From Planctomycetota bacterium (lineage in GTDB: Bacteria; Planctomycetota; Phycisphaerae; WQYP01), in the NCBI GenBank assembly GCA_021838985.1, contig JAKCCC010000019.1:1-12170 (forward strand): a DNA stretch of 12,170 nucleotides. The letters run 5' to 3'. The position numbers were made by a program, and so were the translations under genes. Below, piece after piece: positions 1-12,170 of this stretch; the first letter of the stretch is position 1, and each line of letters opens with the position of its first letter. The notes under the pieces were generated by a model that was not told where the DNA came from, did not search any database, and saw nothing but the letters and a program-made list of their open reading frames with translations.

Positions 1-1392
1 CTTATCCAGCTCCTCCCGGCTCTTGCCGCTGGAAGCCTCCGATATCTCCCCGTTTTGTTTCGTGTGTATCACCAGGACTGCGCCGGAAAGCTCCGGGTAA
101 GTTCTTTCCAGCCATTCGGCCACCTCGTCGCAATTGCGCGTATCGTCGGTCATTACGAACAGCACCGACTTTTTCCCCGCTGGCGCCAGTTCGTCGTACA
201 CCTTTTTCCATTCCAAATAGCCCAGATGGAGATAGTCCCGGTATTGTTCGCTGTATTTGGCGCTGCGCTGCTCCCGGAGCTTGGCCCGTGAGGCCGCGTC
301 CGGCAGAACGGGGTGTTTGACCACCCCCTGGCGAATCGCCTCCACCAATGGATAATCGCTGATGGTCTGCACGAAGATTGCCCCATCGTCGTGTTTGGGC
401 GTGGCCGTCAGGTCAAATTGCGCCGCCAGCCGACTTCCCTTGAGCCGCAGTTGGTTGGAAATATCCTGGAGGCTTTGAAACCACGCCAGGCGTTCATCAT
501 GGATATGATGCGCCTCGTCGTTCAGCACGACCAGGTCCGGCACGCCGCGAATAACGGCGCCCAAGTCCACGCGCGAGTCATTGGTTTGCCCCGCCGGCCG
601 TGGTCCCAGGAAATAGCTCGTGGTGTCGGCATCAGCAAAGCTCGCCGCGCGTTCATGGTCGAACAGCCGGTGGACGTTGCTAAGGAAAATATTCCCGGTA
701 TCGGATAGCACCCCGATTTGATCCTGCACATGCAGGCTCACCTGGAAATCATCTTTCCAGTTGTGCCCCTCGTAACCGTTTTCCGGCAGCACCGGGTCCT
801 GGTGGAATATCCGCAGGCCGTCAAAATCGGCCCGCAACCGGTCCAGCACGATGATATTCGGCGCCACCAAAAGAAAGTTCGTCGATAAATCCGAATCCGG
901 TACGTAACGCTTATGGAAGTACGCCCAAGCCACCAGCAGGCTCATCACCTTCGTCTTGCCCGTGCCGGTGGCCATTTTCATCACGTAGCGCGTCCAGTCG
1001 CCGGCGAACATGCCGGTGGAAACCGCTCCGGAGGAATCGAACTTGATCAGGGAAAACGGATCGCGGGCCTTTTCCACCTCGTAAAGCCAGATGGCGGATT
1101 CGACCGCTTCGCGCTGGGCGAAATAATAACGAAACGGCCGGACCGTGTTATCGGCGTTGGCCAGCAGATGTTCACGGTTAAACCACCAATCCAGGAGCGC
1201 CCGCGTGGTTTCACATGCCCCCCGGTAGCCGCCGTCGCGCCAGGCCTTAACCGCTTGGCGCACCTTGTGCACCAACGGCGGCAGGAGCTTATGGTAGCCT
1301 TGCTCCCGCAAGTCCTGCTCGCCGGGATACCAGCGAATATGCGGATCAAGGATGGCGCAGGGGTCGGTGGGAAAATTTGGGTCAAGGGTCAT
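1..1392 (-). CDS. res: Type III restriction Res subunit, helicase part (partial, C-terminus beyond window)
   Basis: This is an uninterrupted frame of 464 codons from an ATG at 1392 to the left edge, with no stop, so only the N-terminal half is present. Res couples ATP-driven DNA translocation to cleavage in complex with Mod. Visible superfamily 2 helicase motifs are a Q-motif-like FRYYFAQREAVE near residues 87-98, Walker A ATGTGKT at 141-147, the DEAH box at 292-295 in VVLNDEAHH, and motif III LTATPK at 328-333. The family is usually about 900-1000 residues. The C-terminal PD-(D/E)XK nuclease expected of Res lies outside the window and cannot be confirmed. The start is 9 bases after the PIN gene stop with no good Shine-Dalgarno, which suggests translational coupling. 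The methyltransferase in the same operon supports a type III assignment over a stand-alone helicase. Confidence 0.9.
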   Translation of the reverse strand, partial: MTLDPNFPTDPCAILDPHIRWYPGEQDLREQGYHKLLPPLVHKVRQAVKAWRDGGYRGACETTRALLDWWFNREHLLANADNTVRPFRYYFAQREAVESAIWLYEVEKARDPFSLIKFDSSGAVSTGMFAGDWTRYVMKMATGTGKTKVMSLLVAWAYFHKRYVPDSDLSTNFLLVAPNIIVLDRLRADFDGLRIFHQDPVLPENGYEGHNWKDDFQVSLHVQDQIGVLSDTGNIFLSNVHRLFDHERAASFADADTTSYFLGPRPAGQTNDSRVDLGAVIRGVPDLVVLNDEAHHIHDERLAWFQSLQDISNQLRLKGSRLAAQFDLTATPKHDDGAIFVQTISDYPLVEAIRQGVVKHPVLPDAASRAKLREQRSAKYSEQYRDYLHLGYLEWKKVYDELAPAGKKSVLFVMTDDTRNCDEVAEWLERTYPELSGAVLVIHTKQNGEISEASSGKSREELDK

Positions 1393-1401
1393 AGGTTCTG
1401 C

Positions 1402-1944
1402 TCACCGGAGCAACTTCTCATTTTCCGTGAGTAGCCGGAATCGCTGGTCGCAAAAACCGGCATCGTGCGTCACCAGCGTAAAGTCGCCGGACCTGCAAAC
1501 CTCTGCGATCAGCAAATCATTCACATGGCAACGGCTCGTTGCGAATTTTTGCAAAATATTCGCCAGTTGCGGTTTAGCTATTTTAACGTGGGCAACTTCG
1601 CAGCGGTCGATTATCCCGCGCAACAGGTTGGCAATGCCAACGGCGGCCGCTTGAAATTGTGCCGACTTCTGAAATTTCCGCAGATCCCATTTCTTCCGGT
1701 CCAGGCCGGCACGGTGGAATTCCTGGTGGGTCAGAACATTAACGAGTTCCGACAAAATGATTTCATGGATATAAATTCGAGATCCAGCCTGCCGAATGGC
1801 TTTAAGGGCCTGCGAATAAATCGCCGTGCGGCGGTCCCTGGGATCGCCGGGGTTTTCGACGTAAATCCAGATGTTCGTATCCAGAATAAGCCGGTCTCTC
1901 GCCCGGAATCGATGCGTGGATATGCGTTCCACCCGCGGCGCCAT
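1402..1944 (-). CDS. PIN-domain nuclease (VapC-like), 180 aa
   Basis: PIN domains are metal-dependent RNases, best known as VapC toxins. The expected acidic residues are in place: D22 in LILDTNIWIY with N24, E66 in IILSELVNVL, D143 in HVNDLLIAEV, and D161 in LVTHDAGF. About 15 basic residues precede the domain, and the length is slightly greater than a typical VapC (about 130-150). The ATG directly follows the TGA of the STAS-like gene (TGAATG), with GAGGCGGG upstream as a possible ribosome site. The stop lies 9 bases before res. No small AbrB-, RHH- or PhD-type antitoxin gene lies beside it, so it does not look like a canonical toxin-antitoxin pair. It may be an RNase effector of the restriction operon or a nuclease with another target; the target is unknown. 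Confidence 0.85.
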   Translation of the reverse strand: MAPRVERISTHRFRARDRLILDTNIWIYVENPGDPRDRRTAIYSQALKAIRQAGSRIYIHEIILSELVNVLTHQEFHRAGLDRKKWDLRKFQKSAQFQAAAVGIANLLRGIIDRCEVAHVKIAKPQLANILQKFATSRCHVNDLLIAEVCRSGDFTLVTHDAGFCDQRFRLLTENEKLLR

Positions 1945-2301
1945 TCATCCCGCCTCGCTCATAGCCGTGTCACGGGCCTTCTCGAACTTCTCCGGGTCGG
2001 CAAAGTAGGCGCGGGCGTTCTCCACCACCCGTTTGAGCAGGGTGGCATCCGGTTTGCTAATGCCCACTAACCGGACATGCCGCCGGATATGCTCCGGGGC
2101 AAAGTGCCCGTAGAGCTGGCCAATCGCGGCGTTGAGGAAGGCCGACGTCAGATATTCGACATTGGCGAAGGAGACAGCAACCTTCTTTCCGTCGTTAATG
2201 GCCGTGGCCAGCCTTCGGAACACCTTTTGCCCGTCGGCGGAGGAGACGCAATAGGCGCTCCCGACCATCCCAAACAGGCTTAACGGCACCTCTTTCTTCA
2301 T
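1945..2301 (-). CDS. STAS-like protein of the DUF4325 type, 118 aa
   Basis: This is a small alpha/beta protein. Residues 41-64 (VAVSFANVEYLTSAFLNAAI and onward) match the core of the STAS-like DUF4325 family: a hydrophobic strand, then a Thr-Ser pair (52-53) before a helix. In SpoIIAA-type STAS proteins a serine near this point is phosphorylated by a GHKL kinase. Equating S53 with that site is inference. The chosen ATG at 2301 has AGGACCAGGTG just upstream. An in-frame ATG at 2394 would overlap the ATPase gene by 74 bases and has no such support. The gene follows the ATPase gene by 19 bases and ends directly at the PIN start codon, so ATPase, STAS and PIN are probably made together. DUF4325 proteins are, from memory, often partnered with or fused to GHKL ATPases. 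Confidence 0.75.
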   Translation of the reverse strand: MKKEVPLSLFGMVGSAYCVSSADGQKVFRRLATAINDGKKVAVSFANVEYLTSAFLNAAIGQLYGHFAPEHIRRHVRLVGISKPDATLLKRVVENARAYFADPEKFEKARDTAMSEAG

Positions 2302-2320
2302 AACACACCTGGTCCTGACT
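2300..2320 (-). promoter_or_regulatory. Ribosome binding site deciding the STAS-like gene start
   Basis: On the minus strand the bases between the ATPase stop and the ATG at 2301 read CAGGACCAGGTGTGTT. The AGGTG lies 4 bases and the AGGA 10 bases before the start. This favours 2301 over the upstream in-frame ATG at 2394, which lies inside the preceding gene. Confidence 0.55.
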
Positions 2321-3193
2321 TTATAGTATATCGTCCGGTTTAGTTTCACCGGCCAAGGCGTATGTTTTCTTGTCCGCGGTATTGATACAAACAATAGCCG
2401 CCGTGCCGGGAAAAGGAAAGCCCAAGGCCTCGCGCTTCTCGCGGCCGGCCATGATTTCCCAATAACCGGTATCGGATACCAGCACCAGTTGCCCGCCGTT
2501 CTTTTCCGTAAACTCCCGCAGCAATTTCAATCCCAACCCGCCGGGAACGGGACCTTTTTTGGTTGTATGCCGCCCGGTTAAAGCCCATTGGATTGCGTCC
2601 CGCCCCGACAGGGCCAGCCCCGTATTCTTCCGCACGTTTTCTCTGATGCCGATACCCATGTCCACGAGGGCAAATCTTATGTGGTGGGTCTTCGGAAAAA
2701 CCTGGCCGCAGGTGAAAATTCCCAAACGACTCTCGGCATGAATAGTGGCGTTGCAAAACAACTCGCTGACGCTTTCCTGCACCTTTCGTAACAACCCGCG
2801 GCTCATGCCGGGAAGCTCCTTGCGTCTTAACAAACGGCCCTCGACGTGCCGGGCGAACGCCCGGTCATCGCCGGGAGCAAACATTTGGTAAGGAATGGTT
2901 GTCCCCCAGCGATCAGGAAGTTTTTGCCGGTGGAAGTGGCTCAAAAAACCATTACGGCGCAAAAGCAGTCCCACCTTGGACACCGTGCGGTTTAGCAATA
3001 GGTAGTTCGATCGTTCCTGGATACGATATAAAATCGCGCCCAGTGCCGCGCACATGCAGCCGTCGAGCCATGTCGTCCGTGAAAAATCGACATCAATCCA
3101 TTGACCCCGCAGCGCCTCGCAGTGGTGCCAGATATCGGCAAGCCAGTGAAAGCTTTTTGTGTCAACGCCGAGATTGTCGAGTTGAATGTTCAC
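2321..3193 (-). CDS. GHKL (histidine-kinase-like) ATPase with STAS-like N-terminal region, 290 aa
   Basis: The C-terminal half carries the ATP-binding marks of GHKL proteins. These are an N-box with E144, N148 and H152 in SELFCNATIHA, a G1 box DMGIGI at 178-183, and a G2 box GGLGL at 218-222. There is no histidine-phosphorylation domain and no membrane segment, so it is cytoplasmic and closer to RsbW/SpoIIAB-type switch kinases than to sensor kinases. Residues 33-58 (IDVDFSRTTWLDGCMCAALG and onward) look like a STAS-type strand-helix unit. The start is GTG, 6 bases after the mod stop, with AAGGTG 9 bases upstream inside the mod tail. The next gene is a STAS-like protein, its likely partner or substrate. 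Kinase activity is inferred; such proteins can also act as ATP-driven conformational switches. Confidence 0.75.
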   Translation of the reverse strand: MNIQLDNLGVDTKSFHWLADIWHHCEALRGQWIDVDFSRTTWLDGCMCAALGAILYRIQERSNYLLLNRTVSKVGLLLRRNGFLSHFHRQKLPDRWGTTIPYQMFAPGDDRAFARHVEGRLLRRKELPGMSRGLLRKVQESVSELFCNATIHAESRLGIFTCGQVFPKTHHIRFALVDMGIGIRENVRKNTGLALSGRDAIQWALTGRHTTKKGPVPGGLGLKLLREFTEKNGGQLVLVSDTGYWEIMAGREKREALGFPFPGTAAIVCINTADKKTYALAGETKPDDIL

Positions 3194-3199
3194 TTGCTT

Positions 3200-5383
3200 T
3201 CACACCTTCACCTCCACCACTTTGGTGGTGTCGTTGCCGAAAATATCAATCACCTTGACCGCTATTTTATACCGGCCTGGCTTATCGTATTCATGCCAGC
3301 CGCTGGCCAGCTCCAATTTGCGGTCTTTGCGGGTGCGAAAGCTTTGCCATTCGTTTTCAAAGATAAAATTCCCCGTGGGCATTTCTGTTTCGCCGCCGTC
3401 CTGGCTGCGCACCCGCATCACCTCCGGCCGGCTTCCGAAGTGGAAATCCACCGCCCAATAATCAATCCAGTCGGTCCACTTTTTCGTCAATACCTCCCGC
3501 GTGACGACTCCCTGCTTGTCCTTGATCATCTTTACCACCTGGCCGTTGGCCACCGTCACCTTGCCGCCGCCGGGCTTGAGCGTTTCGCCGAGCGAATCCA
3601 GATCATCCTGCCGGTAAAACACGCCGAAATCGGTCAATCGCACCTGCGCTTTGAGTTTTTCGACCGCCGGTTTAAGCTCCACGTAGGCCACGTCATAGAA
3701 TTTCACCTGTCCGCGTTCGACGGCCCGGCGGTCGAAGACATCCTTGGGAATATACTTCAGACTCAGGCTTATCCCTTTTCCCCTGGCCTCATCCTGGGCC
3801 ACGGGAACCAGGCCCATTTCAAATTCAAAGCCCAATACGTCCACTTTGGCTATTTTTTTCCGGCGGCATTCTTCCACCAGTTCCCGCACCTGGCTCTGCG
3901 TCACCGGCGCATCCACCGGGCCGACCACCACCAGGGCGGCTCCTTTTTTGCCATGGAACGGCGGCATCTGAAAGAGCCGTTCAGCCTGGTAGGCCGTCAG
4001 AATCAGCGTCAGATAATGCTCCTCACGCTGCAGCGCCTGCACGCGACGCTGGGCCTCCGGCAGCGTGGGATCGATGCCGACAAAATATTGGCGTTCGTAT
4101 TTGCCCAGGTTCAGGATTTCAAAACTACGGTAGGGTTTCCCGGCGGCCTTTAATTCCCGCTGCACGCCGATCAGGCGTTTGCGGGTGGTGTGAATGGCGA
4201 AACGGCCCAAATCGCAGCCGATCCATTTACGGCCAAGTTTTTCGGCCACGGCCAGCGTGGTGCCGGAGCCGCAGAAGAAATCGGCAACGAGGTCGCCTTC
4301 GTTGGACGACACAGCCAGAATCCGCTCTACCAGTTGCTGCGGCTTTTGCGTGGGGTAGTAAAGCCTTTCTTCGGAGGCCTTGTTAATGATGGAAATTTCC
4401 CACCAGTCACGTGGCGCTACCCCCTCACGCTGGGCCAAGTAGTCGCGGTAGGTAAGGCCGGGATACTTTGCTTCATCCGTTCGACTTAAACCATCAGCCG
4501 CCCGGATAGGACTTCCTTGCAGGTTCCTGCCACGTATCTGGTACGGCCCTTTTCCGTCGTCATCGTCGAATTTGAACTTGCCCCTTGTCACTATCGAGTA
4601 CTCGGATGCGGCGCTCGACCAGTTGAAGGGCCGGCCGCGCGCAGCTCGATTCTTGGCGTAGAAGTAGATTGCGTCGTGTTTCGGGTTGTAAAAATCCAGT
4701 GTTCTCTCCCGTTCCTTGTAGCACCACACGACTTCGTTCAGGAAATTCTCAGGACGGAAGATCTCGTCCATGGCCAAACGCACCGCGCTGTTCACGCGCC
4801 AGTCGCAGTGCACGTAAATGCTTCCATCCTCCGTCAGCAGGCCGTGCATCAACTTCAACCGTTCGTACATCATGGAAAGGTAGGAATCGGTTCCGCGGCC
4901 CCAGGTGTCGCGGTAAGCCAGTTCTTCAATCACGCTTGGCTCTTTGGTCAGGATTTCACCATCGCCGACTTCCAAGTTAACCGAAAAATCGGCGCCGACA
5001 TCGAACGGCGGATCAATGTAGATGAGTTTCAGGCCGCCGGCGGCTTCAATTTCTTGGCGCAGCGGGCCGTTTTTCAGACTGGAGAGCACCAGTTTATTGT
5101 CGCCCCAGATTAATTTATTGGTCCAGCCGCCACTCTGGCGGCCGCGCCTATCGGCGGCGAAAAGGTGATCCACCGGCTTACCGGTTTCCTGGCGCGGCTC
5201 GTCAATTTGTTCAATGGATTGAAACGGCAGCACCACGCTGGTGACTTCGCTGGTTTTGCCCTGCCAGACCAACTCCACTTCCGGGGCGTCGGCAAACAGC
5301 AGGCTCTTGTATCTGGCCGGCAGCTTTTCGCCGCGGTCGATCATCGCCTTGATCTGTTCCTTCTCTTGGTCGGTAAGAGCCAT
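3200..5383 (-). CDS. mod: Type III Mod-like DNA adenine methyltransferase, 727 aa
   Basis: This enzyme transfers methyl from S-adenosylmethionine to adenine in DNA and provides sequence recognition for Res. Motif IV (IYIDPPF, DPPF at 124-127) precedes motif I (DFFCGSGTT, 368-376), which is the beta-class order of type III Mod proteins. The segment between them, about 215-340, is the probable target-recognition region. YPTQKP at 343-348, just before motif I, is also typical. DPPF fits N6-adenine methylation. The ATG at 5383 follows AAGGGGAC with a 5-base spacer. Residues 3-30 form a charged helical head ending in LLF that resembles the start of the upstream gene. The C-terminus (about 685-727) is a predicted beta-rich segment with PGRYKIAVKVIDIFGND. 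The gene is 31 bases after orf329 and 6 bases before the ATPase gene. No recognition sequence can be read from it. Confidence 0.92.
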   Translation of the reverse strand: MALTDQEKEQIKAMIDRGEKLPARYKSLLFADAPEVELVWQGKTSEVTSVVLPFQSIEQIDEPRQETGKPVDHLFAADRRGRQSGGWTNKLIWGDNKLVLSSLKNGPLRQEIEAAGGLKLIYIDPPFDVGADFSVNLEVGDGEILTKEPSVIEELAYRDTWGRGTDSYLSMMYERLKLMHGLLTEDGSIYVHCDWRVNSAVRLAMDEIFRPENFLNEVVWCYKERERTLDFYNPKHDAIYFYAKNRAARGRPFNWSSAASEYSIVTRGKFKFDDDDGKGPYQIRGRNLQGSPIRAADGLSRTDEAKYPGLTYRDYLAQREGVAPRDWWEISIINKASEERLYYPTQKPQQLVERILAVSSNEGDLVADFFCGSGTTLAVAEKLGRKWIGCDLGRFAIHTTRKRLIGVQRELKAAGKPYRSFEILNLGKYERQYFVGIDPTLPEAQRRVQALQREEHYLTLILTAYQAERLFQMPPFHGKKGAALVVVGPVDAPVTQSQVRELVEECRRKKIAKVDVLGFEFEMGLVPVAQDEARGKGISLSLKYIPKDVFDRRAVERGQVKFYDVAYVELKPAVEKLKAQVRLTDFGVFYRQDDLDSLGETLKPGGGKVTVANGQVVKMIKDKQGVVTREVLTKKWTDWIDYWAVDFHFGSRPEVMRVRSQDGGETEMPTGNFIFENEWQSFRTRKDRKLELASGWHEYDKPGRYKIAVKVIDIFGNDTTKVVEVKV

Positions 5384-5414
5384 CCCCTGTCCCCTTGATG
5401 CCGGCGCGTCGCGA

Positions 5415-6404
5415 TCAGCCGGCCTCCCCGTTGGGCGACAGTGATTTTACGCGATAGGCGGCCGGGTTGCAGCCGGAGGTAGTCGCCGGCGACTGCATCG
5501 GCTGCAGGCCCCGTGCCGGCCAGTTAATTTCTGTGTCGAGGCAAAGCGCCAAGTCCACGAGCAGATTGTGCGATTTTTGCAGCAGTTCGCAAATGGCGTC
5601 GAGATTGGCCAGGGACTTTTGAACCTGTTCCGCAATGCGGCCGGGCATGTCCCCGGTTTCCGGCGCAATGGACGGCTTCCAGTTGGGCGGTAGGAAAGAA
5701 TCGCCAGGAAGAGGGAGGCCGGGTTGCTCGTAGGTCGGGATTGACGCCGCGCGCAGCCGTGCAAGTTTTTCACGTGGTTTCTCAAAATGCAGCACAAATT
5801 CACCCGTCCAACGATGCTTCACCTCGTTTGCGAGGTCGTGAACCTTTTTGAAAGAGGCATCACGCCCAACCCGACGGGCGGCCTCCCAGGTGCGCGGGAG
5901 GCCTTGATCAACGAAAATGGTCCTGAAACTCACCTTGGCTTCGTCCAGTGGGCTGGCGAGCAGAGCGTTGGCGAGCTGCGCGATGCGATCTTCGAATCCA
6001 TTATGAAGGGTTAACGCCCCCACAAGCAGGCCATACCGTAGCAGATTGCGCGACATGTCGTTCCAGCCATTCGCGTCCGCATACCAGCCGACGGTGTAAC
6101 TCCTGTAGGCCCGGTGCAGCAGTTCGGCGCACCCGAAGTGGACGTGCCAGATCTCCCGCCGCCACGCCCACGCGGCCTGAACCTCGCGAGCTGGAATTGG
6201 AGCAGAGCTTGCCCGCTGCGGGAACGCCGTCCAAGCATTGCTCGGCAGCCGCTTGGTGTTGTCGCGGAACTTGTTTTCCCGCTCGCCGGTGGTTCCGTCA
6301 CCGCAAGGAAAAAGCAATGGCAGGAACTCGACCGGGATCGCCTGATCTGAATCAAGCAGCTTTTTCAGACTTTCTTTCTCGTCGGCAGTTAAACGGCGTT
6401 TCAT
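5415..6404 (-). CDS. Helical protein of unknown function heading the restriction operon (orf329), possibly HEPN-like
   Basis: This is a 329-residue cytoplasmic protein with no signal peptide or membrane segment. I do not recognise the full-length family. Residues 5-32 (LTADEKESLKKLLDS and onward to LLF) align without gaps to residues 3-30 of Mod, with 11 identities of 28. The middle (about 80-205) is helix-rich with many aromatics and ends in LANEVKHRW (192-200). The NxxKHR arrangement recalls HEPN-type helical domains, but the catalytic RX4-6H motif is not clearly present. The C-terminus (about 270-305) is another long helix. The ATG at 6404 has GAGGAAGG 7 bases upstream. An in-frame ATG at 6431 lies before that ribosome site, whose bases would then be coding, so I rejected it. 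Position suggests a partner of Mod or an accessory effector. Confidence 0.75.
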   Translation of the reverse strand: MKRRLTADEKESLKKLLDSDQAIPVEFLPLLFPCGDGTTGERENKFRDNTKRLPSNAWTAFPQRASSAPIPAREVQAAWAWRREIWHVHFGCAELLHRAYRSYTVGWYADANGWNDMSRNLLRYGLLVGALTLHNGFEDRIAQLANALLASPLDEAKVSFRTIFVDQGLPRTWEAARRVGRDASFKKVHDLANEVKHRWTGEFVLHFEKPREKLARLRAASIPTYEQPGLPLPGDSFLPPNWKPSIAPETGDMPGRIAEQVQKSLANLDAICELLQKSHNLLVDLALCLDTEINWPARGLQPMQSPATTSGCNPAAYRVKSLSPNGEAG

Positions 6405-6420
6405 GTAGGGACCTTCCTCA
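6405..6420 (-). promoter_or_regulatory. Strong Shine-Dalgarno of the restriction operon's first gene
   Basis: Minus-strand GAGGAAGG is followed by a 7-base spacer and the ATG at 6404. It is the strongest ribosome site in the operon and fixes the start of orf329 at 6404 and not 6431. Confidence 0.65.
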
Positions 6421-6488
6421 ATGGGGATCAAGGCCGCAACGTTGGCGCCGGCGCGCCGTTCACCGCGTTGAAATGGGGTGTTTTGATC
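6405..6488. other. 84-base gap between the Sel1 lipoprotein gene and the restriction operon
   Basis: The gap must carry any dedicated promoter of the restriction operon unless that lies inside the Sel1 gene. It holds a GC-rich palindrome, CGGCGCGCCG at 6449-6458. A 7-base inverted repeat (GGATCAA at 6425-6431, TTGATCC at 6483-6489) encloses most of the gap. No T-run follows the GC-rich hairpin in either direction and I see no convincing -10/-35 pair, so neither a terminator nor a promoter can be called. Confidence 0.4.
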
Positions 6489-8699
6489 CTAATGGAGACC
6501 GCGACCGCCTCCGCCGCGCAGCCGGTTGAGATAGGCTCTAAGTTTTCTTCCGCGTTCGTACCCGAGAGGCGCACTTCGACCTCCGCCGGGCCGTCCCCTG
6601 ACGTAGATATAGGGCCTAAGCGCCTGTTGCGCCAGCTTCCAGAAGTGCCATGTTTCAGCTCCGTATTTGAGACGTCCGTGCATTCCGCCATAGGCCCTCC
6701 GCTCAGCCACGGGGGTCGGCGACGAGGGATTGGCCCATTGATACCATTTTTCGGCCCAAAGGGCGTTTTTCGGCGCCACCCGCTCATTAAGCGTCCGCCG
6801 CGGATCAGACAGTGTTCCCATGTAGTAGCGCGCGGCCGTTACCATCCAGGGCTTGATCCTTGACTCATACCAATCGCGCGACAAACCGGCGTAAGTGTCG
6901 AGTTGATAGAGGGCCATCCAACTATGCTGGGCCTCATTGCGCAAGCGGCGCATCCCGCGCACAGTGGGAAGCGGTGGCTGGGTTTGTACCCAAGGCACGG
7001 CCCCCGAGGGCGGATGCGTATTGATGCCCAACTCGAATTGCGCGATGCGATTGCCGTCATGGGCCAGGCGCAAGAGCTTCTTGCGTGGCATTGATTTCCC
7101 GTCCCAGTGCATGGCCTCCCGCCGCAGTAGCGATGAAGGCCGATAAACCTCCGACGCCGGAAAATTGGTCGAATTGGGCGAAATGTCGGCTGCCCAGTTG
7201 AGGTTCAAGCCCCCCGTGAGTGCAGTCACTCCCTGGAACGGGGTTACGAAATGTTGGAGGTACCATCGACAATGTCGGCTAAATTGCTTTTCCGTTGTAT
7301 CCGGCGCAAATGGAGCCCGCGGTAGCAGTACCACTACCCAAGCTCCCGTAGTCAACGCGCTTGGATGGTTCGGCGACGCCCTGTGAAAATCCTGAAAGCC
7401 TTTCGGCCCGACCAGGCGGATCGACTTGAGCATCAGGATCTCGTCGTTGTCGTAGGGTGGCGTGCGCGATGATCTTAACGGCGCAAGTCCACTCGACTTA
7501 AGCATCACGATGTCGCCGATGTTATAGCGGTAAAATTTCCGGCTTACGAACCGGTGGATCTGCAACATCATGTAGCTTAGCGCATTGATATCATATTTTT
7601 GAGGTGCGGCGCTGGAAAACCTGTCGAAGGGCATGGTGATCTCCGGATTCTTGGCCACCACCGCCCCGGCGAACGTCGTATATCCGCCGTTTTTCGCGCG
7701 CTCCAGCGTGATGGGAAGCCGGTTAATTGATTGGCACAGATGTTCCAGGGCCGCAGGTGTTAACAACACCCTCGTGTGCGGCGGCACATATTCGTCCCAA
7801 CGCGGAGCAACCCCTGCGCTAACCGAAAACCGGCCAATCAACGCAGGGCGTACATGCAGTGGCCGTAACTGCGGTTGGGGGGCGGCTGCGGCGATACTGT
7901 CCGCGGCAGCGACCGCAACCGATGTATTTGCCGTCGCACGCGGCGCAGCACCGATGCCCGGCGCCCGCGCGGCCGCCAGCGCGTTCTGTGCCCCGACAAC
8001 CCCCGCCGCCGCCGCCCTATGCATCCAGTAGCCGGCCTTCAATACATTTGCCGCCGTGCCCGATCCGTTTTGATAGGCCGAGGCCAGGTAATACTCTCCC
8101 AAGGGATTGTTTTGCTTCGCGGCCGCCCGAAACAACTTAAAAGAGCGTGACAGGTTTTTGGCAAGGCCTCGCGTTTCGCCCAAGTACCACATCCCCAGCG
8201 TGTATTGCGCGTCGGAATCCTGCTGCGCTGCGGACCGTTTCATCCAATATACTGCGCGGCGGAGGCTATGCTTGGTGCCGTTTCCGTCCATGTGCATCAG
8301 CGCCAAGTTGTACTGTGCCAAGGGCATCCCTTTCTTCGCCGCACGGTGCGTCCACGCAACCGACCCTGCGAGGTACGGCATCATATGCGTTTGTTGCCAT
8401 TCGGCCTGATAAAACAGACCAAGGTATTGCTGCGCCTCAGCGTCGCCCCGTTCCGCATCCGACTGCAGCGTTGCCATTGCATATCCACCTTCGGATGCCA
8501 TCGCGTCGGCCGCCAACTGTGCCGCTTGCGCTGCTGTTAGAGGCTCCGACTGCGCCGGCTGCGCGTATTGGCCCGCATAGCCCTCGAACGCAGGCGCGGC
8601 ACCATAACCGCCATTCGGCCCATACGGTGGCTGCATGGCGCATCCGCCAGCGCAAAAACCAAACACCACCGCGATCAATAACCTGAAGAAAGGTCGCAT
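6489..8699 (-). CDS. Sel1-repeat lipoprotein with unrecognised C-terminal domain, 736 aa
   Basis: The N-terminus MRPFFRLLIAVVFGFCAGGC is a short signal peptide ending in a lipobox-like AGGC, predicting lipidation at C20 and an envelope location. Residues about 78-235 contain roughly four Sel1-like (TPR-related) repeats with AQYNLALMHMDGNG, AQYTLGMWYLGE and GEYYLASAYQNGSG signatures. Such repeats are protein-interaction scaffolds. An Ala-rich linker follows (about 238-280), then some 420 residues I do not recognise, including two similar stretches DIVMLKSSGL and EILMLKSIRL. The last 37 residues are Arg/Gly-rich (RGRPGGGR, RLRGGGGRG). GGGAG stands 7 bases before the ATG at 8699, which I prefer to the in-frame ATG at 8717. 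It is on the same strand as the restriction operon, but its content suggests an unrelated cell-envelope role. Confidence 0.75.
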   Translation of the reverse strand: MRPFFRLLIAVVFGFCAGGCAMQPPYGPNGGYGAAPAFEGYAGQYAQPAQSEPLTAAQAAQLAADAMASEGGYAMATLQSDAERGDAEAQQYLGLFYQAEWQQTHMMPYLAGSVAWTHRAAKKGMPLAQYNLALMHMDGNGTKHSLRRAVYWMKRSAAQQDSDAQYTLGMWYLGETRGLAKNLSRSFKLFRAAAKQNNPLGEYYLASAYQNGSGTAANVLKAGYWMHRAAAAGVVGAQNALAAARAPGIGAAPRATANTSVAVAAADSIAAAAPQPQLRPLHVRPALIGRFSVSAGVAPRWDEYVPPHTRVLLTPAALEHLCQSINRLPITLERAKNGGYTTFAGAVVAKNPEITMPFDRFSSAAPQKYDINALSYMMLQIHRFVSRKFYRYNIGDIVMLKSSGLAPLRSSRTPPYDNDEILMLKSIRLVGPKGFQDFHRASPNHPSALTTGAWVVVLLPRAPFAPDTTEKQFSRHCRWYLQHFVTPFQGVTALTGGLNLNWAADISPNSTNFPASEVYRPSSLLRREAMHWDGKSMPRKKLLRLAHDGNRIAQFELGINTHPPSGAVPWVQTQPPLPTVRGMRRLRNEAQHSWMALYQLDTYAGLSRDWYESRIKPWMVTAARYYMGTLSDPRRTLNERVAPKNALWAEKWYQWANPSSPTPVAERRAYGGMHGRLKYGAETWHFWKLAQQALRPYIYVRGRPGGGRSAPLGYERGRKLRAYLNRLRGGGGRGLH

Positions 8700-8787
8700 G
8701 GCATGTCTCCCGGCCATAGCTATAACTCGTTGGGTTGGTCCCTGGCCCGCCTAAAAAGTAACGCAATCACGCGATTGGAATGGCCTT

Positions 8788-8816
8788 ATCTTATATCAAT
8801 ACCCTCCCCAGAACAA
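8788..8816 (-). promoter_or_regulatory. Candidate promoter of the Sel1 lipoprotein gene
   Basis: On the minus strand TTGTTC (8816-8811) is separated by 17 bases from TAAGAT (8793-8788), a fair sigma-70-like pair. It would give a leader of roughly 80 bases before the ATG at 8699. Assigned by eye; AT-rich overlap with alternative hexamers such as TATAAG leaves the exact -10 uncertain. Confidence 0.35.
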
Positions 8817-8854
8817 GTGCCGCACCCGGGTTTTTCTCCTCGAATACCGTGCTT

Positions 8855-8877
8855 CGGTGCGGACAATTCCCGCACCG
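8855..8877. repeat. Perfect 8-base inverted repeat, 7-base loop
   Basis: CGGTGCGG (8855-8862) and CCGCACCG (8870-8877) are exact reverse complements around ACAATTC. A further copy of CCGCACC at 8820-8826 can pair with the same GGTGCGG arm, giving two mutually exclusive hairpins. No T-run follows, so it is not an intrinsic terminator. It could be an operator or an RNA switch if transcribed. Confidence 0.6.
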
Positions 8878-8913
8878 GGACAGGACCCCGAACCAGCCCC
8901 GGTTTACGCCCCG

Positions 8914-8930
8914 CTGGCAAGTCTTGCCAG
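8914..8930. repeat. 17-base perfect palindrome, operator-like
   Basis: CTGGCAAG-T-CTTGCCAG is symmetrical over all 8 arm positions around one central base. Its position between the two divergent candidate promoters suits a binding site for a dimeric regulator. A short TTTAC (8903-8907) and GTAAA (8941-8945) flank it as a weaker outer inverted repeat. Confidence 0.55.
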
Positions 8931-9007
8931 ATCCGCTCCGGTAAAGTCTGGCTACGCCCAAGGTTGTGGCCCACGGAATTCGGCATGGCGAAAAGGCCCA
9001 AACTGAT

Positions 9008-9013
9008 TACAAT
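9008..9013 (+). promoter_or_regulatory. Candidate -10 element for the HAD-lysS operon
   Basis: TACAAT matches the sigma-70 -10 consensus well and lies 58 bases before the ATG at 9072, predicting a leader of about 50 bases. No convincing -35 is present at 16-18 bases upstream, so the call is weak. If real, it supports 9072 over the in-frame ATG at 8985 as the HAD start. Confidence 0.3.
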
Positions 9014-9071
9014 AGGACAACTGGAAGGGGCCACGGCCTGGCGATGGGGGCCGCGACAATTGGGATTATCC

Positions 9072-9806
9072 ATGGTTCAGGCCATTTTGTTTGATTTAGC
9101 GGGTACCTTGCTGCATTTCGCGGACGTTCAACCGCGGGAGCTGTTCTGGGTCGGCGCCCGGGATACTTGGCAATATCTGCACGCCCAGGGTATTTCCGCC
9201 CCGCCGTTCGACATCTACGCCGGCGCCAATCTCCGGGCGTTTAAGCGCCGCTATATCTGGTCGAATTTGCGGCGGCGCGATTTCAATGCCATGGATGTGA
9301 TGATCGGGGTCCTGGAAAAGTTCGCGATCGGCCTGCCGACGGCTGATCTGCGGACGCTGGCGTGGATGTGGTACCAGCCGGTGGCGCAGCACGCCACCGT
9401 GGAACCGGGCACCCACGCCATGCTCGAAACGTTCCGTCGCAGCGGCCTGAAATTGGCCATTGTCTCGAACACCTGTGCTCCCGGTTATTGCCTGGATCGG
9501 CATTTGGAACGGGAGAAATTGCTCCAATATTTTCCGATTCGTGTCTATTCTTCCCACACCGTCTATCGCAAGCCACATCCGGAGATCTTCCGAACCGCGC
9601 TGGGCCATCTGGGCGTGACGGCGCAGCAGGCGGTGTTTGTCGGTGACCTGATCGGAACGGATATCAAGGGCGCCCGGCGGGTGGGGATGAAAACGGTCTG
9701 GAAACGCGATGGGCATGCGGTCTCACCGGCGCGGCGAAAGTGGCCGGATCACGTCATCAAAAACCTTACCGATTTAACCGCCGTACTGCCCAAGCTGGGG
9801 CCGTGA
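9072..9806 (+). CDS. HAD-superfamily hydrolase, 244 aa
   Basis: This is a soluble haloacid-dehalogenase-fold enzyme with a helical cap between motifs I and II. Motif I is ILFDLAGTLL with nucleophile D8. Motif II is IVSNT (S132), motif III is K167 in YRKPHPEIF, and motif IV is FVGDLIGTDIKGA with D192 and D197. The second Asp of the usual DxD in motif I is Ala (A10). DxA occurs in phosphonoacetaldehyde hydrolase and is unusual for plain phosphatases, in which this Asp is the general acid. The substrate is therefore open. I chose the ATG at 9072 because it puts motif I at the usual position near residue 8. An in-frame ATG at 8985 would add 29 residues lacking family features. It overlaps lysS by one base, so the two are probably translated together. 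Confidence 0.85.
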   Translation: MVQAILFDLAGTLLHFADVQPRELFWVGARDTWQYLHAQGISAPPFDIYAGANLRAFKRRYIWSNLRRRDFNAMDVMIGVLEKFAIGLPTADLRTLAWMWYQPVAQHATVEPGTHAMLETFRRSGLKLAIVSNTCAPGYCLDRHLEREKLLQYFPIRVYSSHTVYRKPHPEIFRTALGHLGVTAQQAVFVGDLIGTDIKGARRVGMKTVWKRDGHAVSPARRKWPDHVIKNLTDLTAVLPKLGP

Positions 9807-11302
9807 TGTTTTCCGATAATCCGCAATATAAAGACCGCCTGGAGCGGCTCCGCCGATGGCAGGCGGCCGGGGTGAATCCGTTCGGCAGCCGGATCGATGA
9901 TTTGTTATCGATCGCCGCGGCGCGGGGACTGCATACCGCCGACACGCCGCATGACGGCGGTCCGGGCGCTGGCCTCGCGGGGCGCATCCTGCTGCTTCGC
10001 GACATCGGCAAGCTCATCTTTATCACGATTGCCGATTGGACGGGGCGGATCCAGGTGGGTTTGGCCCGGTCCTTGCTGGAGTCCCAATGGTCCCAAGCCA
10101 AATTGCTTGAACTGGGCGACTTGGCATGGTTTCGGGGCAAAATTGGCCACACTAAAACCGGTGAAATCACGCTGTGGGCCGACCGGTTCGGCCTGGCGTG
10201 CAAGGCGCTGGCGCCGCTGCCGGACAAATTTCACGGCTTAACCGATACCGAACTGCGCTACCGCCAGCGGCATCTGGACCTGATGGTCAATCCGGAATCG
10301 CTGGAGGTATTCCTCGGGCGCTGCCGCCTGGTGCGCGGCATCCGGGAATTTCTCCAGGGGCGGGGTTTCCTGGAGGTGGAAACGCCCATGATGCAACCGG
10401 TCGCCGGCGGGGCGGCGGCCCGGCCTTTTCGCACCCACCATCTGGCCCTGGACCTGGATCTATACCTGCGGGTCAGCCCCGAATTATATCTAAAACGCCT
10501 GCTGATCGGCGGGCTGGAGCGGGTGTTTGAAATCAACCGGAATTTCCGCAACGAAGGCCTGGACACCCGCCACAATCCTGAATTCACGATGTTGGAGCTG
10601 TATCAGGCCTACAGCGATCTGGCCGGTATGATGGAACTGACGGAAACACTGCTCTGCCATCTGGCGCGGTGGCGCTGGCGCGAGCTTCATCCCGGGGTGG
10701 AAACGCCGCCGGCGCGCCTTCAGCTGCCCTATGGCCAGCGTATGATCGACTTTACGCCGCCATTTGAACGCCGCGGCTATGGCGAGCTTTTCCAGCGCCA
10801 CGTGGGCGTGGATATGGCCGACCTCGCCGCGGTGCGGCGCTGCGCGGAGGCGCGGCGGATTTCAGACGCTGGCGTGAAAGATCCCGACGTGCTCCGCGGC
10901 GAGTTATTTGATCAGTGTGTGGAACCGGTGCTGCAGCAGAGCGGGCAACCGGTGTTTGTGTCCGATTATCCGGCCGGGCTTTGCCCGTTGACGCGGCGCA
11001 AGGCCGGTCAGGAACATCTTGCCGAGCGGTTTGAACTATACGCCGGCGGCATGGAACTGGCCAACGCGTATACCGAGTTAAACGATCCGTTCGTACAGCG
11101 GCAAACCTTGGAGGCGCAATTGGCCGGGCTGAAACCGGAAGAATCCATGGCCCGCATGGATGAGGATTTTCTGACGGCCTTAAGCTGCGGTATGCCCCCG
11201 GCTGGCGGTCTGGGCATCGGCATCGACCGACTGATGATGCTTCTACTGAACCGCACCAGCATCCGTGACGTGGTGCTGTTCCCCCTGCTGCGACCGGCGT
11301 AA
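9806..11302 (+). CDS. lysS: Lysyl-tRNA synthetase, class II, 498 aa
   Basis: This enzyme attaches lysine to tRNA-Lys for protein synthesis in the cytoplasm. An OB-fold anticodon-binding domain (about 58-135, IFITIADWTGRIQVGL) is followed by the class II catalytic core. Motif 1 lies around GFLEVETPMMQP (187-198), with GGAAARPF after it. Motif 2 is FRNEGLDTRHNPEFTMLE (247-264), and motif 3 is GLGIGIDRLMML (468-479, R475). The lysine-pocket segment GGMELANAYTELNDP (414-428) is intact. The length fits bacterial LysS and the OB domain excludes EpmA, which lacks it. Residues 388-396 read DYPAGLCPL where the E. coli lineage has a Pro-x-Glu-x-Ser-Pro pattern; this may be lineage-typical. The ATG at 9806 shares its A with the HAD stop, behind a weak GGGG. 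The permease gene starts 4 bases downstream. Confidence 0.95.
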   Translation: MFSDNPQYKDRLERLRRWQAAGVNPFGSRIDDLLSIAAARGLHTADTPHDGGPGAGLAGRILLLRDIGKLIFITIADWTGRIQVGLARSLLESQWSQAKLLELGDLAWFRGKIGHTKTGEITLWADRFGLACKALAPLPDKFHGLTDTELRYRQRHLDLMVNPESLEVFLGRCRLVRGIREFLQGRGFLEVETPMMQPVAGGAAARPFRTHHLALDLDLYLRVSPELYLKRLLIGGLERVFEINRNFRNEGLDTRHNPEFTMLELYQAYSDLAGMMELTETLLCHLARWRWRELHPGVETPPARLQLPYGQRMIDFTPPFERRGYGELFQRHVGVDMADLAAVRRCAEARRISDAGVKDPDVLRGELFDQCVEPVLQQSGQPVFVSDYPAGLCPLTRRKAGQEHLAERFELYAGGMELANAYTELNDPFVQRQTLEAQLAGLKPEESMARMDEDFLTALSCGMPPAGGLGIGIDRLMMLLLNRTSIRDVVLFPLLRPA

Positions 11303-11306
11303 CCAT

Positions 11307-12170
11307 ATGTACAAACTCTTTCTGTGCTTTCGGTATCTGACCCGCAAGGGCATCGTTATTTTCCCCATCCTGGCCGTGTGGCTGTGTGTGCTGATGCTCA
11401 TCGTCGTGAACAGCATCATGACCGGTTTTGTCAACCGGGTGCGCACCGCCGGTCGCGGCCTGATGGGCGATGTGGTGATCGGCAGCCAGAGTATGGCGGG
11501 CTTTCCCTATTACCGTCAGTTACAGCGAAAACTCCGCCAGTTGCCGCAGGTGCGGGCCAGTACGCCGGTGATTACCGCCTATGGGCTGCTGAATCTGCCC
11601 GAGTTCGGAATCAATGGGGCCAACACCTACGTGCAGATTATGGGTATTGACCCGGCCGGCAAGTCCAAGGTGAGCGATTTCGGGGCCAGCCTGTTCTGGC
11701 AGCACCAGGCCCCGCGCGAAGCGCTGCGGGATTTAGGACCCCTGGCTTTTCCAGTCACCACCGGCTGGCTCGTAGCGCAGGCCCAACGGCGGCTCAGAGC
11801 GGCCATCCGTCGGCTGCGTCGTCGCCGCACCGCGCTGCTGGCCCTGAAACCTATTCCCGCCTCGGCGTGGTTCGCATATTGGCGGCGCCATTGGCAGGTG
11901 ATTACCCGTGAGGATTACCGGCAGGCCCTTTACGCCCTGGATCGCGCTGATCGCGATCTAAGGTTTGTCGAAAGCTTAAATCCGCACGCGGTTTTTCCTG
12001 ATCGCCAGGCCCTGTTGGATGCCCTGGCCCCGACGACGCCGTCGTTTAAACCTCCTCCCGCGGCGGCCGCCCGCTACCCCACGGCGGCGGCGGAACCCAA
12101 GCACGGCTGCATCGTCGGCGTGGATATCGGTCTTTACCGGCGTGATCGCTTCGGCCATTATCACCGGCCC
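11307..12170 (+). CDS. FtsX/LolC-type ABC transporter permease (partial, C-terminus beyond window)
   Basis: The first 288 codons are present and run off the right edge. A short cytoplasmic start with basic residues precedes one membrane segment (about 16-38, IVIFPILAVWLCVLMLIVVN). A large extracytoplasmic domain follows, with DVVIGS (55-60), PVITAYGLL (87-95) and VQIMGIDPAGKSKVSDF (109-125). This order, one helix and then a periplasmic domain, is that of MacB/LolC/FtsX permeases, which drive lipoprotein release or export with a separate ATPase. The remaining three membrane helices would lie beyond the window. A low-homology stretch at about 127-265 includes an Arg-dense run (161-174). The gene starts 4 bases after lysS without a clear ribosome site. 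The lysS neighbourhood and the N-terminus recall Planctomycetota, from memory. LolC identity is not proven. Confidence 0.8.
   Translation, partial: MYKLFLCFRYLTRKGIVIFPILAVWLCVLMLIVVNSIMTGFVNRVRTAGRGLMGDVVIGSQSMAGFPYYRQLQRKLRQLPQVRASTPVITAYGLLNLPEFGINGANTYVQIMGIDPAGKSKVSDFGASLFWQHQAPREALRDLGPLAFPVTTGWLVAQAQRRLRAAIRRLRRRRTALLALKPIPASAWFAYWRRHWQVITREDYRQALYALDRADRDLRFVESLNPHAVFPDRQALLDALAPTTPSFKPPPAAAARYPTAAAEPKHGCIVGVDIGLYRRDRFGHYHRP

What the first reader, a model, noticed from the sequence alone, without database searches (positions are those of the whole stretch)
1..6404. Type III restriction operon with extra genes inserted between mod and res
Six co-directional genes are spaced by 31, 6, 19, 0 and 9 bases: orf329, mod, GHKL ATPase, STAS-like protein, PIN nuclease, res. 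Known type III systems consist of mod followed by res. Three genes separating them, and a fourth ahead of mod, suggest one unit in which modification/restriction is combined with a switch (ATPase plus STAS) and a second, probably RNA-directed, nuclease. The arrangement is seen in the sequence. The idea of a single defence system is inference, and I do not know this combination as a named system.
Basis: partly seen in the sequence, partly recalled or inferred. Interest (0 to 1): 0.8.

Follow-up and report, generated by a model that had tools for sequence, protein, structure and literature searches.

The report
Toxin cassette nested in restriction operon
A bacterial DNA-cutting defence operon carries, in the gap between its two core genes, a recently described three-gene RNA-cutting toxin cassette, and close relatives carry other toxin-like cassettes in the same gap, so the gap looks like a swap-in slot for backup defences.

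Summary
In detail: orf329, mod, GHKL, STAS-like, PIN and res are co-directional (minus strand; gaps 31, 6, 19, 0, 9 nt). res is cut by the contig end.

The GHKL-STAS-PIN trio is VapKSC, a toxin-antitoxin-like anti-phage cassette (Chambers et al., EMBO J 2026): kinase VapK, antitoxin VapS, PIN nuclease VapC. It is autonomous: in 81 loci from many phyla all three genes are found wherever the contig reaches far enough (some frames broken), and only 23 show this type III mod/res or its remnants.

What I did not find in print is where it sits. The mod-res junction is an exchangeable slot. A same-genus genome has the same locus at 94-97% nucleotide identity, but a DUF1828 pair replaces VapKSC between the mod stop and the seventh codon of res. 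Five genomes of the family hold four different cassettes. Nitrosomonadaceae repeat the pattern (VapKSC, Fic, others). The Mod tree rejects a single origin of the Mod-VapKSC linkage.

Best reading: restriction as first line with a nested, swappable abortive backup, as PrrC is nested in a type I locus. Functional coupling between restriction and the cassette is inference, about 40% likely.

The parts
5415..6404 (-). orf329, function unknown; first 28 residues resemble the N-terminus of Mod
   Evidence: no match in Pfam, NCBIfam, PADLOC, PHROGs; 13 proteins at E <= 0.01 including itself; N-terminal likeness 39% over 28 residues, E 9e-4 for one comparison
3200..5383 (-). mod, type III methyltransferase
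   Evidence: PDLC03633 1.4e-125; N6_N4_Mtase 1e-42
1375..3197 (.). the exchanged cassette (slot content); no match to the same-genus locus L149, while both flanks are 97% identical
   Evidence: blastn; junctions
2321..3193 (-). vapK: STAS domain (residues 1-89) and SpoIIAB-type GHKL kinase domain (96-273)
   Evidence: model; fold matches; conserved kinase residues
1945..2301 (-). vapS: STAS-like antitoxin (DUF4325), S53 at the position of VapS S48
   Evidence: match to 9z7o VapS 7e-25; Ser/Thr in 81 of 81
1402..1944 (-). vapC: PIN nuclease, D22 at the position of VapC D28
   Evidence: family profile matches 9z7o VapC 3.4e-15; acidic residues
1..1392 (-). res, helicase part of the type III restriction subunit, cut by the contig end (464 aa; 902-aa frame in L149)
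   Evidence: ResIII 4.8e-15; full frame of the relative

Best explanation
A type III restriction-modification operon whose mod-res junction is an exchangeable slot for toxin-antitoxin or abortive-infection cassettes; in this genome the slot holds VapKSC. Shown here: gene identities, conserved active and phosphorylation residues, replacement of the cassette at gene boundaries between same-genus genomes, and recurrence in other lineages. Shown in print for the Escherichia homologue: VapS neutralises VapC and the operon protects against a phage. Inferred here: the same works in this copy; single-stranded DNA activates VapK, which phosphorylates VapS S53 and frees VapC to cut RNA and stop growth; restriction cutting, or its failure followed by phage damage, supplies that DNA, so the cassette is a second, abortive line behind Mod/Res in the same operon; exchange goes by recombination in the conserved mod and res flanks. 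The confidence is for identity plus swappable slot; functional coupling alone I put at about 0.4.
For: VapKSC identity: profiles of the STAS-like and PIN families match VapS and VapC of 9z7o at 7e-25 and 3.4e-15; VapK model with STAS and SpoIIAB-like domains; all residues that I could map are kept except position 163 of VapC. Slot: same-genus L149 has the same locus, mod 97.1% and res 96.8% identical in DNA, with 1,333 unrelated bases in place of the 1,823 bases of VapKSC. Four cassettes in five genomes of the family. Second lineage: 7 Nitrosomonadaceae loci with mod-slot-res hold VapKSC (3), Fic (2) and two other sets. Mod tree: 15 VapKSC-linked Mods as one clade rejected, p 7.7e-5. R-M or cas bases fill 21-26% of each of the first three kilobases from the trio against 5-7% beyond 5 kb. 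One VapKSC lies inside a CRISPR-cas operon (L031).
Against: No expression or phage data for this copy. Most of the 81 trios are not beside this mod/res, so VapKSC does not need it. The breadth of cargo (eleven kinds seen) speaks against a link tuned to VapK. Window VapC has Gly at position 163 where 73 of 75 have Asp. Slot content as a whole is only weakly clustered on the Mod tree (13 changes, shuffled mean 14.7, as low in 8 of 200). The swap rests on draft assemblies. The sample of 81 was chosen by likeness to VapK.
Confidence: 0.8

Rival explanations
1. Neutral or selfish hitch-hiking: the mod-res junction is a tolerant, transcribed insertion point where independent toxin-antitoxin cassettes land and are exchanged; nothing links them to restriction. 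This shares the anatomy of the best explanation and differs only in function.
For: Eleven kinds of cargo; VapKSC protects by itself in print; most trios lie elsewhere; mod-res works presumably without cargo, as in L123 and L133.
Against: Recurrent acquisition of nuclease and toxin-antitoxin-like cargo rather than arbitrary genes; R-M enrichment around the trio in other places and other R-M types. I ran no survey of arbitrary operon junctions, so this is not a measured excess.
Confidence: 0.35
2. Mutual addiction: the cassette stabilises the R-M operon in the genome by killing cells that lose it, whatever its effect on phages.
For: VapS and VapC are antitoxin and toxin in print; HEPN-nucleotidyltransferase and Fic cassettes are of toxin-antitoxin kind (recalled) and use the same slot.
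Against: At least 8 loci keep the trio after mod and/or res has decayed: L007, L008, L011, L013, L021, L040, L044 and L127; so the trio does not hold the whole operon in place. That fits the cassette being sticky itself.
Confidence: 0.2
3. One dedicated six-gene system.
For: Tight spacing; mod-trio-res in 12 of 81 other loci from several phyla.
Against: Same-genus locus with another cassette; mod-res without cassette (L123, L133, L169); 58 of 81 trios without this mod/res; VapKSC protects alone in print.
Confidence: 0.05

Closest known systems
VapKSC (Chambers et al., EMBO J 2026, PMC13373217; abstract and sections 11, 12, 13 read, passages of others)
   Same: Same three families, same order K-S-C, conserved Ser/Thr in VapS, catalytic Asp of VapC.
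   Different: The paper reports 289 instances, 103 within 10 kb of another immune gene; its main text has no occurrence of 'type iii' or 'nested'. Position between mod and res, and exchange of cassettes there, are not described in the parts I read; its supplement was not seen.
CapK-CapS (same paper)
   Same: STAS-GHKL kinase with a STAS substrate.
   Different: CapK has an N-terminal HTH and CapS a DNA-binding winged HTH; here neither is present and the partner is a nuclease.
PrrC in the type IC locus ecoprrI (passages of the review PMC12707154)
   Same: An RNA-cutting backup encoded inside a restriction locus.
   Different: PrrC is a single tRNA anticodon nuclease in a type I locus, triggered by inhibition of the restriction enzyme; here a three-gene PIN cassette in a type III operon, trigger not tested.
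Type I loci with exchanged intervening ORFs (Bibersteinia trehalosi, passages of PMC4996451)
   Same: Non-homologous ORFs between conserved R-M genes of related strains, ascribed there to recombination.
   Different: Type I (M-S-R), with the specificity gene exchanged too; here the junction of a type III pair.
SpoIIAB-SpoIIAA and RsbW-RsbV partner switches
   Same: Fold of both VapK domains.
   Different: Output is a nuclease, and the kinase carries its own STAS domain without Ser/Thr at the second-helix start.

Membership tests
VapKSC | Three-gene operon vapK-vapS-vapC | tested here: met
   Order and gaps 19 and 0 nt.
VapKSC | VapK: STAS plus GHKL kinase, no N-terminal HTH | tested here: met
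VapKSC | VapS: STAS with conserved Ser/Thr (S48) | tested here: met
VapKSC | VapS C-terminal helix that reaches the VapC active site | tested here: inconclusive
   A terminal helix 103-116 is predicted, with the lowest confidence of the model; contact with VapC was not modelled.
VapKSC | VapC: PIN with catalytic acids | tested here: met
   9z7o VapC 3.4e-15 by family profile; D22, E66, D143, D161 present; position 163 is Gly.
VapKSC | VapK ssDNA-site aromatic (F54) | tested here: inconclusive
   Escherichia VapK was not at hand; candidate column 51 is F in 45 and L in 30 of 77, L in the window; column 56 is Y in the window.
VapKSC | Protection against phage | not testable with these tools
   Needs infection assays.
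Type III restriction-modification | Mod of the type III kind | tested here: met
   PDLC03633 1.4e-125.
Type III restriction-modification | Res with helicase motor | tested here: met
   ResIII 4.8e-15; NCBIfam BPTD_3080 4.9e-48 but 163.8 bits against a cut-off of 800.
Type III restriction-modification | Res endonuclease domain | tested here: inconclusive
   Beyond the contig end in the window; a PDF...ETK stretch is in the frame of L149 and in 11 of 13 res frames above 900 bits.
CapK-CapS | HTH on the kinase and winged HTH on the STAS protein | tested here: not met
   VapK of 290 aa is spanned by the STAS and kinase matches; the 118-aa VapS shows STAS plus one terminal helix.
PrrC-type nested backup | RNase-type gene encoded between R-M genes | tested here: met
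   vapC lies between mod and res.
PrrC-type nested backup | Nuclease is a PrrC homologue | tested here: not met
   The effector is a PIN protein with a 9z7o VapC match.
PrrC-type nested backup | Nuclease released when restriction is inhibited | not testable with these tools
   Needs infection assays.

The most novel reading that the evidence does not exclude
The mod-res junction of this type III subfamily is a dedicated guard slot: whichever toxin-antitoxin cassette sits there is functionally tied to Mod/Res (by operon dosage, by DNA ends that Res makes, or by contact), so the operon is a chassis with an interchangeable abortive effector. VapKSC is one of eleven kinds of cargo seen in the slot.
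Probability: 0.35. Interest if true: 0.8.

Novelty: new variant of a known kind. Interest (0 to 1): 0.6.

Why it matters
It puts a newly described damage-sensing toxin system physically inside a restriction operon, so the open question of how front-line restriction hands over to abortive infection can be tested in one operon. The same-genus swap offers matched alleles: nearly identical mod and res with different cassettes. Reading what lies between mod and res of this subfamily may also be a way to find new toxin-antitoxin or abortive cassettes.

Tried and rejected

Trees, results that do not help: window VapK is a long branch; joining it to the main 43-row group is not rejected (p 0.23), so a second origin on the VapK side is not shown. 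Three short VapK rows (L074, L082, L084) were left out of that tree. For the Mod tests, L138 (no VapKSC, nested among VapKSC-linked rows) and three distant rows were dropped, and six distant or partial rows.

Print on genes between mod and res: in an open-licence library; one search found nothing, one review, two papers on other matters (type I loci). Of the papers, PMC13373217: abstract and sections 11, 12, 13 read, passages of others; PMC12707154, PMC13092281, PMC12988326, PMC4996451, PMC4687069: passages only; the others in listings only.
Full report
WHAT IS THERE. The window is the whole of contig C480 (12,170 bases) of a draft genome of 2.92 Mb in 579 contigs, 69.5% complete. Six genes lie on the minus strand in the order orf329, mod, GHKL, STAS-like, PIN, res with gaps of 31, 6, 19, 0 and 9 nt. 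mod is a type III methyltransferase (PDLC03633, 1.4e-125); res matches ResIII (4.8e-15) and is cut by the contig end.

RESIDUES. VapC D28 falls on window D22 and VapS S48 on window S53 (alignments, positions counted by me). In the set, the VapS site is Ser in 66 and Thr in 15 of 81; VapC positions 22, 66, 143 and 161 carry the acid in 74, 75, 75 and 75 of 75; position 163 is Asp in 73 and Gly in 2, the window being one of the two. VapK E144, N148, H152, D178 and G180 are identical in 77 of 77. In VapK's own STAS domain, the residue before its second helix (46) is D, N, H or C (51, 21, 3, 1, one gap, of 77), never Ser or Thr; that it is the counterpart of the phosphosite is my inference from the two models.

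HOW OFTEN. The genome-contig scan gave 94 relatives of VapK, the best 80 kept; viral contigs gave 2. L085, the same stretch as L079, was left out, leaving 81 loci. VapS was found in 80 and VapC in 77; L067 ends inside vapK, and L039, L065 and L077 end 33-225 bases after vapS. Not all copies are whole: vapK is split in L028, L070, L072, L082 and L084, vapC is split or short in L025 (contig end), L030, L037 and L052. L057 has the order S-C-K. The set was chosen by likeness to VapK, so its fractions are not population estimates. Of the 81, 23 show this mod/res subfamily: 12 with mod upstream and res downstream (L005, L006, L010, L023, L026, L027, L036, L038, L043, L052, L070, L080; in L036 mod lies 4 kb upstream, in L006, L043 and L080 other sequence of 1.5-2 kb lies before res, L006's res and L027's mod are cut by their contigs); 2 with res and only remnants of mod (L007, L011); 4 with mod, or its end at a contig border, and no res directly after (L024, L033, L035, L037); 5 with only fragments of mod and/or res (L008, L013, L021, L040, L044). 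L073 has a distant mod on the other strand and was not counted. L127, from a later search, is a further remnant case.

OTHER DEFENCE CONTEXTS. Neighbours by Pfam: type ISP enzymes (L047, L076; L048 by likeness), type I genes (L019, L029, L039), another type III pair (L014), Eco57I-type methylases (L009, L067), and SNF2/NOV_C, AAA, HNH, DUF1156 and DUF499 genes (L051, L071, L072; L059 and L061 by likeness). In L031 the trio lies inside a cas operon, between cas7 and cas4-cas1-cas2. R-M or cas bases fill 22%, 26% and 21% of the first three kilobases from the trio, 7% at 5-6 kb and 5% at 6-8 kb; 37 of 81 loci hold such a hit of 100 bits or more. This control is internal, and its queries come from the same loci.

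THE SLOT. orf329 was found in 3 of 120 relatives: own, G392 (same genus) and G411. G392 (L149) has the gene order of the window around it. By blastn, window 3198-5497 is 97.1% identical to L149, 1-1374 96.8%, 5495-8854 94.5% and 8879-12169 96.6%. Window 1375-3197 (1,823 bases, the trio) has no match there; L149 has 1,333 other bases with a 182-aa frame (no Pfam match) and a DUF1828 protein. The left break is two bases beyond the mod stop, the right one at the seventh codon of res; identity in mod does not fall towards the slot. VapK was not found in G392 at E <= 1e-15.

OTHER OCCUPANTS. mod at E <= 1e-80 was found in 9 of 198 relatives, own included; longer stretches were read for all but G325. 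Slot: window VapKSC; G392 and G407 the DUF1828 pair; G404 DUF6932 plus a 244-aa frame; G402 a Polbeta-type nucleotidyltransferase plus HEPN; G356 and G459 nothing; G527 a PDDEXK_3 gene in an incomplete copy. G459 carries VapKSC elsewhere on the same contig (L168). In the phylum sample mod reached E <= 1e-60 in 21 of 392 genomes and VapK E <= 1e-15 in 9 of 392. Of the mod set I read 13 longer stretches: 8 have res after mod, with nothing between (L123, L133, and the distant L142), PDDEXK_3 (L125), SLFN_AlbA_2 (L136), KilA-N (L141), AAA plus subtilase (L138), or a broken copy with a KilA-N piece and other frames (L140); 5 have res first or none found after mod (L124, L134, L135, L137, L139). As a repeat in another lineage, Mod of Nitrosomonas nitrosa (L010) was sought in its family: 13 of 125 genomes, itself included. 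I read 9 more stretches; of these 10, 7 have mod-slot-res: VapKSC in 3 (L010, L185 = L005, L193 = L027), Fic in 2 (L186, L192), a DUF488 protein, a 298-aa frame and an orphan VapS in L187, an orphan VapS, AAA_15 and a 206-aa frame in L188; in 3 (L189, L190, L191) no res follows mod in the stretch read. Counting all, eleven kinds of cargo were seen: VapKSC, DUF1828 pair, DUF6932 pair, HEPN pair, PDDEXK_3, SLFN_AlbA_2, KilA-N, AAA-subtilase, Fic, DUF488 set, AAA_15 set.

HISTORY. On the Mod tree of 30 rows window Mod and L149 Mod are sisters (100/99) inside a five-row family group with four cassettes; holding the 15 VapKSC-linked Mods together is rejected (p 7.7e-5; also 5.2e-6 on 27 rows, and 1.1e-59 on 31 rows). 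VapKSC as a label needs 5 changes (shuffled mean 10.4); all slot contents need 13 (least possible 9, shuffled mean 14.7). On the VapK tree of 84 rows the type III label needs 15 changes, and 23 of its 25 rows fall in one 43-row group (96/99) mixed with others; the window and L013 lie outside, but joining the window to that group is not rejected (p 0.23), whereas one clade of all type III-linked rows is (p 7e-107). So on the Mod side the linkage arose more than once; on the VapK side a second origin is not shown.

orf329. It has 13 relatives at E <= 0.01, itself included, and no family match. Its first 28 residues resemble those of Mod (39%, E 9e-4 for a single comparison); the relatives aligned keep the pattern, P0135 lacks it. 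It was found in 1 of 392 phylum genomes, its own. A shared docking segment is a guess.

MECHANISM AND LIMITS. Shown here: identities, residues, swap, recurrence. Shown in print for another species: antitoxin action, structure, protection. Inferred: that this copy is active, that ssDNA triggers it, that restriction supplies the trigger, that exchange is by recombination. The breadth of cargo suggests a general slot rather than one tuned to VapK, which is why coupling stays near 0.4. I have not found the slot in print, in an open-licence library and without the supplement of Chambers et al.

Noticed in passing
L031 2228-12021 (Desulfuromonadales): VapKSC lies inside a CRISPR-cas operon, between cas7 and cas4-cas1-cas2: a second kind of defence operon with the cassette inside.
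   Followed up: partly
L187 4530-4871; L188 2926-3321: Orphan VapS genes in the mod-res slot without vapK or vapC by tblastn. In L187 the phosphosite is Ala and the protein ends early; in L188 it is Thr.
   Followed up: partly
window 6404-6310 and 5383-5290: orf329 and Mod share an N-terminal stretch (LT..EK..I..., then a P-rich turn and LLF); conserved in most orf329 relatives and in Mods.
   Followed up: partly
L144 3878-5156 (Streptococcus phage Javan172): A distant VapK-like gene (26% identity) followed by a 114-aa ORF near the integrase, with no annotated PIN gene.
   Followed up: no
L143 5878-7724 (Deinococcus gobiensis plasmid P5): RefSeq annotates ATP-binding protein, STAS-like protein and PIN protein in a row: a plasmid-borne VapKSC with no R-M gene annotated within 5 kb.
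   Followed up: no
L192 6518-7404; L187 7560-8422: A nucleotidyltransferase and HepT-like pair directly after res (Pfam for L192, likeness for L187), so cassettes also sit behind res.
   Followed up: partly
L033, L037, L043, L044, L188: An AAA_15 ATPase and a ~200-aa partner follow VapKSC (or an orphan VapS), so cassettes can be stacked in the slot.
   Followed up: partly
L063, L064 (euryarchaeal genomes): VapKSC in archaea, with an N6_Mtase fragment on the other strand about 25 bases after vapC (Pfam for L063, likeness for L064).
   Followed up: no
window 2321-3193: The PADLOC model DrmA PDLC02567 matches VapK over its kinase part (9.1e-9); this could mislabel VapK as a DISARM gene.
   Followed up: no
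window 1402-1944: VapC of the window has Gly at position 163 where 73 of 75 have Asp; effect on activity unknown.
   Followed up: no
window 6489-12170: Flanking genes look ordinary: Sel1-repeat protein and HAD hydrolase by Pfam, lysyl-tRNA synthetase-like and LolC-like frames by my reading; all have counterparts in L149.
   Followed up: partly
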